Shown: positions 3,713 through 51,229 of the stretch, piece after piece
Layout of the letters: each line of letters starts with the position of its first letter
How positions within the stretch are numbered: the first letter of the stretch is position 1
From: Streptacidiphilus sp. ASG 303
Lineage (GTDB): Bacteria > Actinomycetota > Actinomycetes > Streptomycetales > Streptomycetaceae
Reading direction: 5' to 3'
DNA length: 64,000 nt
Assembly: GCF_020991365.1 (NCBI RefSeq)
Contig: NZ_JAJLRA010000006.1
Coordinates: 186,001 to 250,000, forward strand
The notes under the pieces: model-generated
Seen by the model: only the letters and a program-made list of their open reading frames with translations
The model's database searches: none
What the model was told of the DNA's origin: nothing
Position numbers and translations under genes: made by a program

Positions 3713-6493
3713 ATGAACCCATCCCCCGGGGGCCCCGGGCCCGGCGAGCCCGGAGGCTCCGAGGAACGCCACCGCGACCTGCCCGCCCTTCCGAGGCGCC
3801 GCACCCCCGCCGCCGCGCAGGACGGGGCCGCAGCGCAGGACGGGGCCGCGCCGTCCCCCGGACGGCCCGCGCTGCCGACGCGCCCCGTGGGCGCCGGCCG
3901 CCCCGCGGGCTTCGACGGCCCCTCGGGGACCGGGAGGCCCGCACCGCCCGCGGACGACCGCCCCGCGCTGCCCAGGCGCCCCGTGGGGGCGGGCCGCCCC
4001 GCCGGGTTCGACGGGCCCCCGCCGCTGTCCGAGCGCCCCGGGGCACCGGCGCGTCCCGTCGGGTTCGGCAAGCCCGGGCCGTCCGCGGACCGCCCGGCCC
4101 TCCCGACGCGCCCCGCGCCGTCCGGCCGCCCGGCGGCGCCCGCCCCCGACCCGCAGTCACCCCGTGAGGCCCCCGCGGCGCCCCGGTCCGTGACCGACAC
4201 CGCCCCCCTTCCCGTCCTCGCGGCCGCCGCCGAGGAGGAGGAGGCGCGGGTGCGCACCGGCGAGGTCGTCGCCGGCCGCTTCCTGGTCGCCGTCCGCGCG
4301 CCGGAGGGCTCCGAGGCCCGGCCCTGCCCCGCGGACCGCCTCCCCGAGCCCCGCCCCGTGGCGCGCACGGCCGGCGAGCGCCGCCCCGCCGGGCCCGTGG
4401 GCCCCGTCGGCCCGGTGGTGCTCGGCTCCGGGCCCGGCGGCGCCGCGCTCCTGGAGCGCGAGGCCGAGGTCGCGCGGCTCCGCGACCTCCTCTCCCGCGG
4501 CCGCTCCATACGGGTGACCGGGCCGTCCGGCTCCGGCCGCAGCGCCCTGCTGCGCGCGGTCGCCGACTCCTGCGCGGGCATCGCCCCCGACGGCGTCGTC
4601 CGGCTGAGCGGGTACCGCCGCACCCCGGCCGACCTGCTGCAGGACCTCTACGCCGCCACCCACCGTGCGCCCGGCCACCGCCCCGACCGCCGCGAACTGC
4701 CGGACCTGCTGGCCGGGGTGGGGGCCCTGGTGGTCGTCGACGACGTGGAGTTCGGCGGCGCCGCGCTCGACGAGTTCCTGGACGCCGCCCCCGAGTGCGC
4801 GTTCCTGGTCGCCACCGCCCCCGACACGGCCGCCCCCGACTCCGGCGCACGCCTGGAGGAGAGCGTCCTCGGCGGGCTCTCCCGCGACGCCTGCCTGGCG
4901 CTCCTCGCCTCGCTCGCCGGGCGCCCCCTGGACGCGGTCGAGCGGGCCTGGGCGGTGGACCTGTGGTTCGAGTCCGAGGGCCTGCCGCTGCGCTTCGTCC
5001 AGGCGGGTGCGCTGCTGCGGCACCGCGACGTCGCCGCCGACGCCCTGGCCGTCACCCGCGAGGAGCGGGCGTCCCTCTTCGGCGGCGGCGCCGACCCCCG
5101 TCCGGACGGCGACCCCGCCCTGCTGGACGAGGAGCTGCGGCAGGCCGTGCCGCTGCCCTCGGTCGCGGAGAGCGCGGCCCCCGCCGTGCGGATCGCCCGC
5201 GGGCTCTCCGACCAGGCGCGGGAGGTGCTCCGGCTCGCCGTGGGCCTCGGCGGCCAGTGCCCCACCGCGCCGCACCTGCCCGCGCTGATCGACGTCGGCC
5301 AGGGCGAGAGCGCCCTGCGCGAACTCGTCGACTGCGGGCTCGCCGTCTCCGCGGGGGAGCACCACCGGCTGACCGCGGGCGTCCGCTCCCTCCTGGCCAT
5401 GGAGTGGCGGACCGGTGACGTCGCCCGCGGGGCGGCGCAGCACTTCGCCTGGTGGGTCGGCCACTCCTCGGTCGTGCCCGAGCAGGTCGCGGCCGAGGCG
5501 GAGGTGCTGGTCGCCGCCCTCTACGCGGACCGGGAGGCGGGCCGGCACGGCTCGGTGGTGCTGCTGGCGCGCGCAGCCGCGCCCGCGCTCGCGCTGAGCC
5601 TGCGCTGGGGTGCCTGGGAGCAGGTCCTCCGGCTGGGACTGGAGGCGGCGCGGACCTCCGGCGCGGTCTCCGACGAGGCGTGGTTCCACCACGAACTCGG
5701 GGTGCTGGCGCTGGTGACGGGCGCGGAGGACCGGGCCCGGACCGAACTGGAGGCGTCCGTCGCGCTGCGCGGCGCGCTCGGCGACACCTCGGCGGGTGCG
5801 GCCCGCCGGATGCTCGCCCTGCTCGCCGGTGCGGGCGGCGCCGCCGGTGCGGCCGGGGCGGTCGGCCGGCCCGTCCAGGGGCGCTCCATGGGCCACCTCC
5901 CCTGGCGGCGCGGCGGTGGCAGTGCGGCGGGCGGGCGCGCCCGGCGGCGCGGCGCCGCCGCGGGCGCCGGCGTCGTGCTGCTCGCGGCGCTGGGCGCGAC
6001 CGCCGGCCTGGTCGCGGCCGGCAGCAGCGCGGGGACGCCGACGCCGCAGCGGACCGTGCCGGGCGTGCCGGCCGACGCGGGGGTCCCGGAGGACCCGGCG
6101 GACCTCGGCGCCTCCCCCTCGGCGGACGCCCCGTCCGCGCCGGCCTCCGGCACCGTCCGCGGCACCTCGCGCCCGCCCTCGGCCTCCTCCTCCGCGACGG
6201 CGGCCTCCGCCCCGCTGCCGGTGCCGGGCGGGTCCGGCGCCCCCTCGGGCTCCGCGGGTCCCGCGGCCCCGACGGCCGGCGCACCGAAGCCCTCCGCCCG
6301 GCCGACGGGCGGGGGCACGCCGTCCCGGCCGCCGAAGCCGTCCCCGTCCGGCACGTCGCCGAAGCCCTCGCCGAGCGGGACGTCGGCGTCGCCGACCGCC
6401 TCCCCGTCGGGCTCCGCCTCGCCGACCGCGACCCCGGTCGACCCCCCGCCGCCGCCCCCGGGCACGTCGCAGAGCGGGACCGGCCTGCCGTAG
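3713..6493 (+). CDS. Large P-loop (STAND/AAA-like) protein with one membrane segment
   Basis: 926 residues. The N-terminus (1-175) is Pro/Gly/Arg-rich with roughly 30-residue degenerate repeats (RPALPTRP, GRPAGFDGP). From about 245 an ATPase-like region begins with RVTGPSGSGRS (Walker A, about 267-277) and LVVVDDVEF (Walker B, about 339-347), followed by helical repeats like a STAND ATPase. A helix near 747-770 (VVLLAALGATAGLVAAG) should cross the membrane. The last 150 residues are Ser/Thr/Pro-rich and low-complexity, presumably extracytoplasmic. The Walker A lysine is replaced by Arg, so nucleotide hydrolysis is uncertain. Similar proteins are annotated as ATP/GTP-binding in Streptomyces; function is unknown. 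A receptor or scaffold role is inference only. Confidence 0.8.
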   Translation: MNPSPGGPGPGEPGGSEERHRDLPALPRRRTPAAAQDGAAAQDGAAPSPGRPALPTRPVGAGRPAGFDGPSGTGRPAPPADDRPALPRRPVGAGRPAGFDGPPPLSERPGAPARPVGFGKPGPSADRPALPTRPAPSGRPAAPAPDPQSPREAPAAPRSVTDTAPLPVLAAAAEEEEARVRTGEVVAGRFLVAVRAPEGSEARPCPADRLPEPRPVARTAGERRPAGPVGPVGPVVLGSGPGGAALLEREAEVARLRDLLSRGRSIRVTGPSGSGRSALLRAVADSCAGIAPDGVVRLSGYRRTPADLLQDLYAATHRAPGHRPDRRELPDLLAGVGALVVVDDVEFGGAALDEFLDAAPECAFLVATAPDTAAPDSGARLEESVLGGLSRDACLALLASLAGRPLDAVERAWAVDLWFESEGLPLRFVQAGALLRHRDVAADALAVTREERASLFGGGADPRPDGDPALLDEELRQAVPLPSVAESAAPAVRIARGLSDQAREVLRLAVGLGGQCPTAPHLPALIDVGQGESALRELVDCGLAVSAGEHHRLTAGVRSLLAMEWRTGDVARGAAQHFAWWVGHSSVVPEQVAAEAEVLVAALYADREAGRHGSVVLLARAAAPALALSLRWGAWEQVLRLGLEAARTSGAVSDEAWFHHELGVLALVTGAEDRARTELEASVALRGALGDTSAGAARRMLALLAGAGGAAGAAGAVGRPVQGRSMGHLPWRRGGGSAAGGRARRRGAAAGAGVVLLAALGATAGLVAAGSSAGTPTPQRTVPGVPADAGVPEDPADLGASPSADAPSAPASGTVRGTSRPPSASSSATAASAPLPVPGGSGAPSGSAGPAAPTAGAPKPSARPTGGGTPSRPPKPSPSGTSPKPSPSGTSASPTASPSGSASPTATPVDPPPPPPGTSQSGTGLP

Positions 6494-46294: not shown

Positions 46295-46960
46295 CTACCC
46301 GGCCACCGTCGCGTCGGGTGCCTGGAGCTGGATCAGCGTGGCCGTCAGGCTGTAGGCCAGGGACTTGCCCTGGATGCTGTTGCCGGCCTGCTCGTCGATG
46401 CGCCCGGTGACCGTCACCCGCTGCTGGTCCCCCGGATCGAGCCTGAAGTACTCCGCGAACCCGGCGTAGTCGCCGTCGGTCCGCGTGTACGGCACGTCAC
46501 CCGACTGCGGGCCGTTGGGCCCCAGGCTGTGGGCGAACGCGTCGTCGAGGTCGATGTCGAACTCCTTGTCGCCGAGGTCGCGGCCCGTGCTGCTGCGCCG
46601 CTCGATGGCGACGTGCAGGTGGAAGTACTTGAGGTCCGCGTCCCGGACCGCCTCCTCGCCGGACCCGACGCCGTCCCGGTGCAGGGCGAGGCGCACCTTG
46701 CCGCTCAGCGAGCCGCCGCCGCTGAACACCGCGCTGAGCGTCGGCAGCGGACTGCCCGGGACGAGGTCCGTCGCCGACGGCGCCGAGGTGGTGGACGCTG
46801 ACCCGAGGGTGAGGGTGCCGGTCTGGACGGTGGTGGAGCCGGTGTTCTGGGTGTCGGTGAACCACGCGTAGGTCCCTCCGGTGACGGCCACGGCGGCGGC
46901 GGCCAGGGATACCGATCCGGCGAGCGCGGCGACCTTCCTGCTGCTCCTGAACACGCTCAT
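46295..46960 (-). CDS. TasA/camelysin-like protein with SipW-dependent-type signal peptide
   Basis: 221 residues. Basic start (MSVFRSSRK), hydrophobic core AALAGSVSLAAAAVAVTGG and then TYAWFTDTQNTGSTTVQTG, the hallmark of signal peptides cleaved by SipW-type peptidases. The mature part is acidic and beta-rich (SLSGKVRLALHRDG, DADLKYFHLHVAIE, GDYAGFAEYFRLDPGDQQRV, SLAYSLTATLIQLQ), similar in layout to TasA/CalY fibre proteins. Its partner peptidase is the divergent gene at 47262. Probably a secreted surface or fibre subunit; that is by family analogy. Confidence 0.83.
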   Translation of the reverse strand: MSVFRSSRKVAALAGSVSLAAAAVAVTGGTYAWFTDTQNTGSTTVQTGTLTLGSASTTSAPSATDLVPGSPLPTLSAVFSGGGSLSGKVRLALHRDGVGSGEEAVRDADLKYFHLHVAIERRSSTGRDLGDKEFDIDLDDAFAHSLGPNGPQSGDVPYTRTDGDYAGFAEYFRLDPGDQQRVTVTGRIDEQAGNSIQGKSLAYSLTATLIQLQAPDATVAG

Positions 46961-47261
46961 CCCGTCCCGACCGTCCTCATGTCCGTCCACGTCCGCGCGG
47001 TGGTCCGCCGCTGCACGCCACGTGCGTTCCGCCCGCACCTCCCTGCCGGTGCGGCATCTGACGACAAGACTGCCGAGGGGCCGCCCCCGCCACATCACCA
47101 AAGCGCAGTAAGCGCCTATCCCCACTTTTGACGATGCGCCGGACCAGCCCCCGCGGAAGGATCGGAAGGGCGACTGGTGTCAGGGCCCCCGGTCGCGACG
47201 CACACGCCGCCGGCCGACCACGGGCCGCGCGGAAGGGGAAGGCACGGGCGGGAGATCAACT
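46961..47261. other. Divergent promoter region of the SipW-type module
   Basis: 301 bp. AT-richer around 47090-47130 (gcagtaagcgcctatccc, cacttttgacgatg). TTTTGAC near 47128 resembles a -35 element for the peptidase gene. No ORF supported. Confidence 0.45.
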
Positions 47262-48035
47262 GTGGCGACCACGGCTCCCCGGGCGAGGGGATCGCACCGC
47301 CGTCCCGCGGCCGGCCCCCCGGTGCCGGGCAGGGCCTCCGGGGGGCGCCGGGGCCGCCGCGGGCGGGGCCGCGGCGGCCCCTCCCGCACCACCGGCTCGC
47401 CGCGCGGCCGGGGCAGGGCGCCGCGGGGCCCCGGGGGCGCCCTGCGCGTCGCGGCCCAGGTCCTGGTCCTGCTCGCCGCGGCGGGGGCCGTCGCCCTGGC
47501 CCTGGCGCTGACCGTGCTCCCGCTGGCCGTGCACGGCTCGGTGCTGACCGTCCTCACCGGGAGCATGGACCCGGCGATCCCGCCCGGGTCCGTGGTGGTG
47601 GACCGCCCGGTGCAGCCCGGATCCATCAGACGCGGCGACGTGGTCACCTTCCGGTCCGGCCGCTCCCCGTCCGGCGGGGAGCAGCTGGTCACCCACCGGG
47701 TGGTGGCGGTCCACAGCAGCCGCGTCGGGCTGTCGTTCACCACGAAGGGCGACGCCAACCGCGTCGACGACCCCGGCCGCCGTGACGCGTCCGACGTCCG
47801 GGGCCGGGTCTGGTTCCACCTGCCGCAGATCGGCCTCTGGCGGCAGCGGCTGCTCTCCGGGGCCGGCGCACTCGTCGTCGGCGGCCTCGCCCTCGGCGTC
47901 TGGGGGGCGCGGACGCTCGCCTGGGCGCTCCGCCCGGCGGAGGGGGGCGCCGGGGCGCCGCAGGAGGGGGGCGCAGGCCCGGAGCCCGGCCGCAGGCGCG
48001 GGCACGGCACGGTGGAGTGGGACGGCGGTGCCTGA
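47262..48035 (+). CDS. SipW-type (S26B, Ser/His) signal peptidase
   Basis: 257 residues. An Arg/Gly/Pro-rich basic head (1-65), a membrane helix (about 70-90), then catalytic motifs: LTGSMDPAIPPGS with Ser101, QLVTHRVVAV with His145 in place of the Lys of ordinary bacterial signal peptidase I, and TKGDAN...DD (Asp164, Asp169/170). A second helix (about 196-218) follows and the C-terminus is cytoplasmic and polar. This is the archaeal/ER-type dyad found in SipW, which processes TasA-like substrates. GTG 47262 has GGGAG 8 nt upstream. It overlaps the next gene by 8 nt. Confidence 0.88.
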   Translation: MATTAPRARGSHRRPAAGPPVPGRASGGRRGRRGRGRGGPSRTTGSPRGRGRAPRGPGGALRVAAQVLVLLAAAGAVALALALTVLPLAVHGSVLTVLTGSMDPAIPPGSVVVDRPVQPGSIRRGDVVTFRSGRSPSGGEQLVTHRVVAVHSSRVGLSFTTKGDANRVDDPGRRDASDVRGRVWFHLPQIGLWRQRLLSGAGALVVGGLALGVWGARTLAWALRPAEGGAGAPQEGGAGPEPGRRRGHGTVEWDGGA

Positions 48036-48636
48036 CCGCGGGCGCCACCGCAGGCGGCCCGCCCCCGCCGCCGCACCGAGCCCGCTGCTGCGCCGCCTCG
48101 CCGCCGCGGTCCTCTTCGGCGCGGCCGGGACCGCCGCCTCCACACCGCTCTGGGGCACCACCGGCGCCTGGCTCACCGACACCGCGGACTCCGGCACCGT
48201 CCGCGTCGACACGGCCCCCGACCCCGAGATCCCCGACCCCGAAACCCCCCACGCCGAAACCCCCCACGCCGAAACCCCCCGCTCCGAGGCGGCCGCGCCT
48301 GCGGCCGCCGCTCCCGGTGCGGCCGGCTCCCCGGACCGGTCCCCGGCCCCCGGCCCCGCCGCCCGGAGCGGCCCAGCCCCGCAGGGCGCGCACCCGGACG
48401 CCGCCGGACCGGCGGGGACCGGCCGGCCGGCGGACACCGGACAGGCCGGCGCCGGGCGGACAGGGGGCGGACGGACGACCGGCGGGAGCGGGGGCACCGG
48501 CAGGCACCGGGCCGTGCCCCCGGGCGGCCCTGCCCCGGGCAGTGCTGCCCCGGCGGATGGTGCCCCGGCCGGCGGTGCCGCGGACGGCGCCGGCCGGTCC
48601 GGTGCGCAGGGAGGCACCGGGGGGCGCGGACGATAG
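48028..48636 (+). CDS. Second SipW-substrate-like secreted protein, low-complexity mature region
   Basis: 202 residues. Basic start, hydrophobic segment LRRLAAAVLFGAAGTAAST and then TTGAWLTDTADSGTVRVDT, matching the AWFTDTxxxG motif of SipW-type substrates. After that the protein is almost entirely low-complexity: HAETP repeats, then Ala/Gly/Pro/Arg-rich sequence, with no folded TasA domain. GTG 48028 overlaps the peptidase stop, so the two are co-translated. It may be a minor fibre anchor or adaptor (like TapA in Bacillus), or a decayed substrate. Confidence 0.68.
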   Translation: MPDRGRHRRRPAPAAAPSPLLRRLAAAVLFGAAGTAASTPLWGTTGAWLTDTADSGTVRVDTAPDPEIPDPETPHAETPHAETPRSEAAAPAAAAPGAAGSPDRSPAPGPAARSGPAPQGAHPDAAGPAGTGRPADTGQAGAGRTGGGRTTGGSGGTGRHRAVPPGGPAPGSAAPADGAPAGGAADGAGRSGAQGGTGGRGR

Positions 48637-48820
48637 CGGGAGTTCCGGTCGGAGGGGGGAATACGCCGGTTCGGCGCCGTCTGTCAGCGGCCTGGACTAC
48701 GATCCGTCACGCTGCGGTGCCGAACGGTTGCACCGCGTCGATCTGCCCGCCTGCGGGCCGCGCTCCTGCCTGCCACCTGCGCGTCCGGGCCGGGCCGGGG
48801 ACCGCGTCGGCAGCTGGGGG

Positions 48821-50347
48821 ATGCGTATGACAGCAGGACACCAGACCTCCGCCCGCCGGATCCACCGCGCCCCGCGGCGGTCCCGGCCCCGGCTCCGGGC
48901 CGTCCTGCGCCGCGGACCGGCCCGCTGGGGCGCGACCGGCGACACCGCGGCGGTGGCCGCCGCCACGGCCGCCGCCCTGCTGCTCGCCGCCGGTCCCGCC
49001 GACCGCCTGCTCCCGCTGCGGCAGACCCACCTCCTGCTCGTCCTCGCCGCCGCCGGCACCGGCGCGGCCGCGGTCGGCGTCGCCGCGCTGACCCCGCGGC
49101 TGGCCGGCGGGGGCGGCCGGCCGCACCCGGTCGTCGCGGCGGCGCTGCTCCTGCACAGCCTCGTCCTGATGCCCGCCTCGGTGGTCGACACCGGGTCCGA
49201 CGAGGCGCTGCGCTGGCTGGCCGCCATCCGCTTCACCGCCTCGGTCTGCTTCGTCCTGCTGCTGGCCGCCGCGCTCCGCACCCGCCCGCTCCGCTGGGCC
49301 CGGGGCCTGCGCGGAGTCCTGGCCGCGGTGGCCGCGACCGCGGCCGGCGGCCTGCTCGGACCATCCCTCCTGCCGCCGCTGCAGTCCTCGTCCGGCGACC
49401 GGCCGCCCGCCCTGGCGCTGGCGGCGGCCTGGCTCGCCGTCTCGCTGGCGCACCTCGGCACCGGGCTCCGCCGCGGCGACCGGCTGCGCACCCGGCTCGG
49501 CCTCGGGCTCTCCGTGGCCGCGGCCGCCCAGCTGGGGAGGGTGCTGGCGGGCCACCCGGTCTGGGCGCCGGACCTGGTCTCCGCCGCGCTCCGGCTGCTG
49601 GGCCTGCTCGTCGTGCTGGCGGCGCTGACCGCCGACTTCCTCCACCAGGCCGACCGGGTCGAGGGGCGCCTGCGTGCCTCCGACCGCCGGGCCCGGCAGG
49701 CCGCCGAGCGCGACCACGAGATGCGCAACGTCCTGGCCGGCCTGTCCGGCGCCGCCTACCTGCTGCGGGCCGCGGGCGCCCGGCTGGGCCCCGGCGAGCA
49801 GGCCGAGCTGGGCGCCGCCGTCCAGGCCGAGCTGGAGCGCCTCCGGGAGCTGCTGGCCCGCGACGGCAGCCGCCCGTCCGACGACCCGGACGGCCACGAG
49901 GTGGAGCCGGTGCTGCGCCGGCTGGTGGTGCTGCGCCGCACGGTGGGCGCCGACGTCGAGCTGGCGGCCGAGCCGGGGCTGCGCACCACCGTTCCCGCCT
50001 CCGTCCTCGCCCAGGTGGCCAGCAACCTCCTGGCGAACTGCGAGCGCCACGCCCCCGGCGCCCGGGTGCGGGTGGCGGCCCGGAGGGAGGGCGGCGCGGT
50101 CCTGGTGGAGGTCGCCGACGACGGCCCGGGGCTGGCCCCGGGCGCCGAGCGGCGGGTGATGCGGCGCGGGGTGCGCGACACCGGTGCGGGCGGCAGCGGG
50201 CTCGGCCTGTACGTCAGCTCCCGGCTGCTCGCGGAGCACGGCGGCGCGGTCCGTCTCCTGCCCCGCGACCCGCTGCGGCCCGGCTGCACGGCGGTGGTGG
50301 AACTGCCCGCCGCCGGGGAGCCGGACGCCCGGGTGTCCGCCGCCTGA
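48821..50347 (+). CDS. Sensor histidine kinase with multi-pass membrane domain
   Basis: 508 residues (506 if ATG 48827 is used, which has GGGGG at better spacing). About eight hydrophobic segments in residues 40-275. A short coiled linker leads to the H-box AERDHEMRNVLAGLSGAAYL (phospho-His in DHEMR), then a HATPase domain with N-box NLLANCERH, G1 VADDGPGLAPG and G2 GSGLGLYVSSRL. No extracellular sensor domain or HAMP is seen, so the membrane bundle probably senses the signal. The response-regulator gene follows after 204 bp. The SipW-type module lies 184 bp upstream. Confidence 0.9.
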   Translation: MRMTAGHQTSARRIHRAPRRSRPRLRAVLRRGPARWGATGDTAAVAAATAAALLLAAGPADRLLPLRQTHLLLVLAAAGTGAAAVGVAALTPRLAGGGGRPHPVVAAALLLHSLVLMPASVVDTGSDEALRWLAAIRFTASVCFVLLLAAALRTRPLRWARGLRGVLAAVAATAAGGLLGPSLLPPLQSSSGDRPPALALAAAWLAVSLAHLGTGLRRGDRLRTRLGLGLSVAAAAQLGRVLAGHPVWAPDLVSAALRLLGLLVVLAALTADFLHQADRVEGRLRASDRRARQAAERDHEMRNVLAGLSGAAYLLRAAGARLGPGEQAELGAAVQAELERLRELLARDGSRPSDDPDGHEVEPVLRRLVVLRRTVGADVELAAEPGLRTTVPASVLAQVASNLLANCERHAPGARVRVAARREGGAVLVEVADDGPGLAPGAERRVMRRGVRDTGAGGSGLGLYVSSRLLAEHGGAVRLLPRDPLRPGCTAVVELPAAGEPDARVSAA

Positions 50348-50551: not shown

Positions 50552-51229
50552 GTGACCGTACTCGTCATCGACGACCACCGACTCGTCGGCACCAGCCTGG
50601 TCCTCGCCCTGCGCGGACACGGGCTGGACGCCTGCACCGCCGTCGGCCGCACCCTCGCCGCCCTGCTCGACGAGGCGGCCGGGCTGCCCCCGGGCCTCGC
50701 CCTCCTGGACCTCGACCTCGGGCGCGGCGACGACGGCACCGAACTGGACGGCGTCGAACTGGTGGCCCCGCTCTGCGCGGCGGGCTGGACGGTGCTGGTG
50801 GTCACCGGCACCACCGACCGCGCCCGGATCGCCGCCGCGGTCTGCCGCGGCGCGGTGGGCTGGGTCGCCAAGTCCGCCCCCTTCGAGGACCTGGTCCGCA
50901 CCGCGCTCGACGCCGCGGCGGGCTTCCCGGTGCTCGCCCCCGCCGAGCGCGCCGAGCTGGTCGACCTGCACCGCCGCACCGTCGCCGACCGGCCCGCGGC
51001 GGGGGCCGCCGACCGGTCCCGCCTGCTGGAGCGCCTGACCCCGCGCGAGGCGGCGGTGCTGCGCGCCCTCGCGGAGGGCCGCCGGGCCCGGGCCATCGCC
51101 GAGGAGTCCTGGGTCGCGCTCTCCACCGTGCGCAGCCAGATCCGGTCGATCCTCGTCAAACTGGAGGTCAACTCCCAGCTGGAGGCGGCCGCCCTGGGCC
51201 GCGAGCTGTTCCCCCCGTCCCGGTCCTGA
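50552..51229 (+). CDS. NarL/LuxR-type response regulator
   Basis: 225 residues. Receiver domain: VLVIDDHRLVG (acidic pair), phospho-acceptor Asp in ALLDLDLGRGDDG, Thr in VVTGTT and Lys in VAKSAP. A GerE/LuxR HTH follows at the C-terminus: LTPREAAVLRALAEGRRARA, IAEESWVALSTVRSQIRSIL. The D-G-T-E-L insertion after the phospho-site is slightly long. GTG 50552 has GGGGAA nearby. It forms a two-component pair with the kinase upstream. Confidence 0.92.
   Translation: MTVLVIDDHRLVGTSLVLALRGHGLDACTAVGRTLAALLDEAAGLPPGLALLDLDLGRGDDGTELDGVELVAPLCAAGWTVLVVTGTTDRARIAAAVCRGAVGWVAKSAPFEDLVRTALDAAAGFPVLAPAERAELVDLHRRTVADRPAAGAADRSRLLERLTPREAAVLRALAEGRRARAIAEESWVALSTVRSQIRSILVKLEVNSQLEAAALGRELFPPSRS

What the first reader, a model, noticed from the sequence alone, without database searches (positions are those of the whole stretch)
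46295..48636. SipW-type alternative secretion module: two substrate-like genes around a Ser/His signal peptidase
A TasA-like protein (46295-46960) with the TYAWFTDTQNTG motif is divergent from a signal peptidase whose general base is His145 instead of Lys. A second protein overlapping the peptidase gene repeats the motif as TTGAWLTDTADSG but lacks a folded TasA domain. In Bacillus, SipW processes TasA and TapA to build amyloid-like matrix fibres. A comparable pathway in a hyphal actinomycete could build a surface fibre. The low-complexity second substrate looks like an accessory or anchor unlike TapA in sequence.
Basis: partly seen in the sequence, partly recalled or inferred. Interest (0 to 1): 0.72.

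Follow-up and report, generated by a model that had tools for sequence, protein, structure and literature searches.

The report
TasA-type fibre module in a chaplin-bearing actinomycete
A chaplin-bearing actinomycete carries a compact five-gene set that looks able to cut and export a relative of the Bacillus biofilm-fibre protein TasA, plus a tiny helper that resembles only the fibre's linking strand, which suggests a biofilm-type fibre outside its usual home; the parts are well supported but the fibre itself is inferred.

Summary
The peptidase (47262-48035 +) is a Ser/His/Asp signal peptidase of the SipW/SEC11/archaeal class: TIGR02228 73 bits against a cut-off of 51.85, and S101/H145/D164 align with human SEC11. 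Three of the genome's four other S26 enzymes are Lys-type. The divergent gene (46295-46960 -) is a TasA/camelysin relative: TIGR04088 and PF12389 above cut-off; profile comparison E 1.4e-14 to independent camelysin-like proteins; the predicted fold's top PDB matches are TasA (Z 9.3). Three of TasA's four 'proline box' interface residues are kept.

The second substrate (48028-48636 +) keeps a signal peptide and a TasA-like mature N-terminus under purifying selection, followed by a fast-evolving Ala/Gly/Pro tail. In B. subtilis the 14 N-terminal mature residues of TapA suffice for biofilm, so I read this protein as a natural 'donor-strand-only' initiator (inferred).

These three genes and a downstream histidine kinase/response regulator pair were found in all three genomes of the genus and in no other sampled genome of the family. 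SipW-camelysin pairs are known, also in other Actinomycetota. New is the variant: the minimal accessory, the linked two-component system, and the chaplin-bearing host. Processing and fibre formation are not shown.

The parts
46295..46960 (-). TasA/camelysin-family protein, 221 aa (presumed major fibre subunit)
   Evidence: TIGR04088 24.9 bits (cut-off 19), PF12389 23.2 (22.5); hhalign to independent camelysin-like proteins E 1.4e-14; predicted fold matches TasA 8AUR, Z 9.3; conserved in three species, pN/pS 0-0.3
46865..46960 (-). SipW-type signal peptide, residues 1-32, predicted cleavage TYA|WFTD
   Evidence: TIGR04088 match at residues 18-50; cleavage placed by analogy with TasA (mature protein starts at residue 28, PMC10151520)
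46826..46864 (-). predicted N-terminal donor strand (mature residues 33-45, WFTDTQNTGSTTV)
   Evidence: position equivalent to TasA donor strand 28-38 (PMC9674648); alignment A3
46961..47261 (.). divergent intergenic region; 47116-47138 is a 23-bp block invariant in three genomes
   Evidence: alignment of three species
47262..48035 (+). SipW-class signal peptidase (Ser101/His145/Asp164), two predicted TM segments 67-85 and 197-215
   Evidence: TIGR02228 73.1 bits (cut-off 51.85); phmmer to SEC11A/C; TM estimate; core pN/pS 0.22-0.31
47562..47564 (+). catalytic Ser101 codon
   Evidence: TGSMDP aligned to SEC11 SGSMEP
47694..47696 (+). His145 codon, general base in place of Lys
   Evidence: THRVV aligned to SEC11 VHRVI; own Lys-type paralogues read VKRVV/IKRVI
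47751..47753 (+). Asp164 codon, third catalytic residue
   Evidence: TKGDAN aligned to SEC11 TKGDNN
48028..48636 (+). second SipW-type substrate, 202 aa, no folded domain; candidate donor-strand-only initiator
   Evidence: no family match; residues 1-64 pN/pS 0.25-0.55, tail about 0.82 and total length 149-202 aa in three species
48169..48207 (+). mature N-terminus WLTDTADSGTVRV, resembling the TasA-like mature N-terminus
   Evidence: best non-self 14-mer in the window by a wide margin
48220..48633 (+). Ala/Gly/Pro-rich low-complexity tail, no LPxTG motif, no TM segment
   Evidence: composition and motif check; near-neutral divergence
48827..50347 (+). sensor histidine kinase with about 7 predicted TM helices
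   Evidence: PF02518 61.8 bits; TM estimate; in 3/3 genus genomes and 0/38 other family genomes at E<=1e-20
50552..51229 (+). LuxR/NarL-type response regulator
   Evidence: PF00196, PF00072; same genus restriction

Best explanation
This is a SipW-type export and fibre-assembly module. The Ser/His/Asp membrane peptidase removes alternative signal peptides (cleavage inferred at TYA|WFTD and TGA|WLTD) from two secreted proteins. The first is a TasA/camelysin-fold subunit that probably polymerises outside the cell by donor-strand exchange, its freed N-terminal strand filling the groove of the next subunit. The second keeps only a signal peptide and a donor-strand-like N-terminus on a disordered Ala/Gly/Pro tail; it probably gives the first strand, as TapA does, while the tail tethers or spaces it at the cell surface. 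The adjacent, co-inherited histidine kinase/response regulator pair probably controls the module. Shown here: peptidase class and catalytic residues, TasA family and fold, conservation of the three-gene order, restriction of the five genes to the genus, and selection on the N-terminus of the second protein. Inferred: actual cleavage, fibre formation, the initiator role, and regulation.
For: Peptidase: TIGR02228 above cut-off, TIGR02227 far below; SEC11 alignment with Ser/His/Asp; three own paralogues are Lys-type. Subunit: TIGR04088 and PF12389 above cut-off; A1 vs A4 hhalign probability 98.3, E 1.4e-14 over 178 columns, where A4 excludes the window family; A4 alone finds TasA 5OF1 at 4.3e-11, and a profile that includes the window family scores higher, 53.1 bits; AlphaFold2 core pLDDT mostly 73-89, with the top three VIA rows all TasA, Z 9.3-8.4 against 6.1 for the next; Foldseek 8AUR E 7.1e-6. 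TasA proline-box residues F29, P62, Q232 (PMC10151520) correspond to F34, P68, Q211, and F200 to I188 (alignments). Second substrate; TapA residues 44-57 suffice and AFHDI resembles AFNDI (PMC10151520). Five-gene linkage.
Against: No experimental evidence of cleavage or fibres. The first 49 residues of the model have low confidence, so the donor strand was not modelled. W-[FL]-T-D may simply be what the peptidase recognises, so its presence in the second substrate need not mean strand donation; the similarity after the Asp is modest. The peptidase does not reach the Bacillus SipW equivalog cut-off (54 of 190 bits), nor does the subunit reach the TasA equivalog cut-off (16 of 450). No binding site linking the response regulator to the promoters was shown; inverted repeats there are not above chance.
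Confidence: 0.6

Rival explanations
1. The second substrate is only a shared-signal cargo: its W-[FL]-T-D motif is the peptidase's recognition sequence and its secreted tail does something unrelated (a wall spacer or released peptide).
For: The strongest similarity to the TasA-like protein is at the cleavage site; the rest is modest (2,881 of 200,000 shuffles). No folded domain and a near-neutral tail.
Against: Conservation runs to about residue 64, some 17 residues past the predicted cleavage site, with pN/pS 0.38-0.55 over residues 46-64. It overlaps the peptidase gene, as tapA and sipW overlap in B. subtilis (PMC10151520).
Confidence: 0.35
2. The second substrate is a decaying remnant of a duplicated tasA-like gene.
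For: Shares only the N-terminal part; the tail evolves near-neutrally and total length varies from 149 to 202 aa.
Against: The frame is open in three species and the N-terminal 64 residues are under purifying selection; no trace of the TasA domain remains.
Confidence: 0.12
3. The TasA-like protein is a secreted, non-polymerising protein or a camelysin-type protease rather than a fibre subunit.
For: PF12389 is named after a metallo-endopeptidase; family membership does not prove polymerisation.
Against: No HExxH zinc motif in the sequence; interface residues most conserved in TasA filaments are kept; best fold match is the TasA fibre.
Confidence: 0.25
4. The histidine kinase/response regulator pair is an unrelated neighbour that only shares the locus.
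For: Separated from the second substrate by about 190 bp; no shared operator shown.
Against: Both genes are as genus-restricted as the module and sit beside it in G001.
Confidence: 0.4

Closest known systems
Bacillus subtilis tapA-sipW-tasA
   Same: Ser/His signal peptidase, TasA-fold subunit, a second SipW-type substrate whose mature N-terminus resembles that of the subunit, and gene overlap between peptidase and accessory.
   Different: Subunit gene is divergent instead of downstream; accessory follows the peptidase and lacks TapA's Ig domain; linked to a two-component system; host genome carries chaplins.
Bacillus cereus sipW-tasA-capP-calY
   Same: SipW with camelysin subunit(s) and an accessory whose C-terminal part is repetitive and disordered and gives wall retention (PMC13082335).
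   Different: CapP has a conserved DUF4047 N-domain; the second substrate here has none. One camelysin here, two there.
Other actinomycetal SipW-camelysin loci (e.g. Rhodococcus L012, Blastococcus L009, Curtobacterium L011, G047 of the same family L049)
   Same: SipW-class peptidase with nearby TIGR04088-like substrates.
   Different: No low-complexity, donor-strand-only partner was seen next to the peptidase in these loci with the signal searches used (which detect the second substrate itself only weakly); identity to this peptidase 38-48%.
Archaeal bundling pili (AbpX)
   Same: Profile match to AbpX (E 0.001; 0.00023); archaeal bundling pili are donor-strand-complemented fibres in the literature (PMC9674648).
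   Different: Distant; archaeal; no corresponding accessory known to me.

Membership tests
SipW/SEC11/archaeal (S26B) signal peptidase, TIGR02228 | curated model score above cut-off | tested here: met
   73.1 bits against 51.85
SipW/SEC11/archaeal (S26B) signal peptidase, TIGR02228 | His, not Lys, as general base; Ser and Asp in place | tested here: met
   S101/H145/D164 align with SEC11A/C
Bacillus SipW equivalog NF046067 | score above 190 bits | tested here: not met
   54.4 bits: same class, not the Bacillus equivalog
Lys-type bacterial SPase I, TIGR02227 | score above 47 bits and catalytic Lys | tested here: not met
   19 bits; His at the Lys position
SipW-dependent signal peptide, TIGR04088 | score above 19 bits (TasA-like protein) | tested here: met
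   24.9 bits
SipW-dependent signal peptide, TIGR04088 | score above 19 bits (second substrate) | tested here: not met
   no match up to E 1; resemblance rests and on conservation
TasA/camelysin superfamily (PF12389) | gathering score | tested here: met
   23.2 against 22.5, N-terminal part only
TasA/camelysin superfamily (PF12389) | TasA jelly-roll fold | tested here: met
   8AUR Z 9.3 over 162 residues, rmsd 3.9; Foldseek E 7.1e-6, on a model of mean pLDDT 64
TasA equivalog NF046066 | score above 450 bits | tested here: not met
   16.3 bits
TasA-type donor-strand fibre | polymerisation by donor-strand exchange | not testable with these tools
   interface residues F34, P68, Q211 kept; needs biochemistry or cryo-EM
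TapA | Ig domain after the N-terminus | tested here: not met
   no family match to the second substrate; low-complexity tail
TapA | mature N-terminus resembling that of the fibre subunit | tested here: met
   AWLTDTADSGTVRV vs AWFTDTQNTGSTTV; modest beyond the Asp

The most novel reading that the evidence does not exclude
The second substrate is a natural donor-strand-only initiator: a secreted protein reduced to a signal peptide, a strand that fits the TasA-like groove and a disordered tether. It would be a naturally minimal TapA that starts a TasA-type fibre in a chaplin-bearing actinomycete under its own two-component system.
Probability: 0.4. Interest if true: 0.68.

Novelty: new variant of a known kind. 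Interest (0 to 1): 0.52.

Why it matters
TasA fibres are studied almost only in Bacillus, and TapA is not conserved even within that genus (PMC10151520), so how such fibres start elsewhere is open. A natural accessory reduced to the strand alone would let the strand-donation model be tested without a folded domain. It would also suggest that an organism with chaplins carries a second, unrelated fibre system.

Tried and rejected
AlphaFold2 with only the three genus sequences gave pLDDT 47; the 17-sequence alignment gave 64. phmmer of the TasA-like protein alone, and a three-row profile, found no TasA in the PDB; the link needed the wider profile, so it was checked with a profile that excludes the window family. 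Conserved 7-bp inverted repeats in both promoters looked like operators, but such repeats occur about 1.2 times per 301 bp in this window. The promoter and terminator scans found nothing. Two family searches with the peptidase failed on the machine and were replaced by TIGR02228. Tree of SipW cores: the genus trio is one clade, but deeper placement is unsupported, so horizontal or vertical origin is undecided. The papers listed by four searches of the held library showed, by title and abstract, no description of a SipW/TasA module in Streptomyces or other Actinobacteria; subscription papers are mostly missing, so this absence is weak.

Full report
WHAT IS THERE. The TasA-like gene runs on the minus strand (46960 to 46295); the peptidase gene starts 301 bp away on the plus strand (GTG 47262) and ends at 48035; the second substrate starts at GTG 48028, overlapping it by 8 bp, and ends at 48636. 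Downstream lie a histidine kinase (48827-50347) and a LuxR-type response regulator (50552-51229). The flanks are ackA and pta on one side (named from sequence by inspection; pta has strong matches across the family) and glgB on the other (named by inspection; matches in the same interval of other genera).

PEPTIDASE. It scores 73.1 bits with TIGR02228 (cut-off 51.85), 54.4 with the Bacillus SipW equivalog (cut-off 190) and 19 with the Lys-type TIGR02227 (cut-off 47). phmmer finds human SEC11C and SEC11A; Ser101, His145 and Asp164 fall on SEC11's SGSM, VHRV and KGDN. The genome has four other S26 stretches: three carry the KRV motif of Lys-type enzymes, and one has Thr at that place. So this is the genome's only match above the TIGR02228 cut-off. 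Two hydrophobic segments fit a membrane enzyme.

TASA-LIKE PROTEIN. TIGR04088 and PF12389 score above cut-off. A direct search of the PDB with this protein or its genus profile does not find TasA, so I built a wider alignment from SipW-linked and related proteins of other phyla. To avoid circularity, the genus alignment A1 was compared with alignment A4 of twelve such proteins without the window family: probability 98.3, E 1.4e-14, 178 columns. A4 on its own finds TasA 5OF1 at E 4.3e-11, 46.6 bits; the wider profile that includes the window family scores 53.1 bits. AlphaFold2 with the 17-row alignment gives a beta-sandwich core (pLDDT mostly 73-89; the first 49 residues are low). Its best PDB matches are the TasA fibre 8AUR (Foldseek E 7.1e-6; VIA Z 9.3, 162 residues) and the TasA crystal structures; the next unrelated row is at Z 6.1. 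Roske et al. (PMC10151520) describe a 'proline box' with F29, P62, F200 and Q232 at the filament interface as the most conserved part of TasA and camelysins. By the alignments these are F34, P68, I188 and Q211 here.

SECOND SUBSTRATE. It has no family match, no LPxTG motif and no strong TM segment. In three species the first 64 residues are under purifying selection (pN/pS 0.25-0.55), while the tail is nearly neutral (0.81-0.84) and the total length varies between 149 and 202 aa. Its junction AWLTDTADSGTVRV matches the TasA-like junction AWFTDTQNTGSTTV far better than anything else in the window (42 against 24). In B. subtilis, TapA residues 44-57 alone allow biofilm formation, TapA starts AFHDI where TasA starts AFNDI, and tapA and sipW overlap (PMC10151520); TasA's strand 28-38 is the donor strand of the fibre (PMC9674648). 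In B. cereus the accessory CapP has a disordered C-domain that retains it at the wall and is dispensable for biofilm (PMC13082335). The second substrate looks like the minimal common part of such accessories. Caution: the motif may be conserved for cleavage rather than strand donation, and the match after the Asp is modest.

DISTRIBUTION. The TasA-like protein is in 3/3 genomes of the genus and in none of 98 others of the family sample; the kinase and regulator are in 3/3 and 0/38 at E 1e-20. TIGR02228 above cut-off occurs in 5 of 101 family genomes, three of them this genus. The order of all genes is the same in G001. In G002 the four genes on one contig keep the order; its regulator lies on another contig. 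In five other genera the pta-glgB interval holds none of the module genes; four were read and hold other genes. Elsewhere, SipW-class peptidases sit beside TasA-type substrates in many phyla, including other Actinomycetota and one other member of this family (G047). In a tree the genus trio is one clade; its deeper origin is unresolved. The genome has seven chaplin matches, which fits an aerial-hypha-forming actinomycete by known biology.

MECHANISM. Best-supported reading: alternative signal peptides are removed by the dedicated peptidase, the TasA-like subunit polymerises by donor-strand exchange, and the second substrate gives the first strand with its tail as tether, under control of the neighbouring two-component system. 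Class, fold, linkage and selection are shown here; cleavage, fibre, initiation and regulation are inferred.

VERDICT. SipW-camelysin modules are a known kind; this is a variant with a minimal accessory and a linked two-component system, in a family where the module is rare.

Noticed in passing
L005 (own genome contig C134, about 5815-6030): An S26 signal-peptidase paralogue with Thr where the catalytic Lys is expected (GGASMQPT ... VVTRVVGVGGD); possibly inactive or using another base.
   Followed up: no
window 46961-47261: A 23-bp block (47116-47138, CTATCCCCACTTTTGACGATGCG) is invariant in three species within the divergent promoter region.
   Followed up: partly
window 48637-48826: The region just upstream of the histidine kinase is strongly conserved in three species although the preceding coding tail is not.
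   Followed up: partly
interval between pta and glgB (L095-L099 in other genera): This interval is a variable spot: other genera of the family carry a phosphofructokinase-like gene, a permease-like gene or others there (names by inspection), none of the module genes.
   Followed up: partly
L052 and G022 (same family): Another genome of the family has two further TIGR02228 matches above cut-off; its neighbourhood was not worked out.
   Followed up: no
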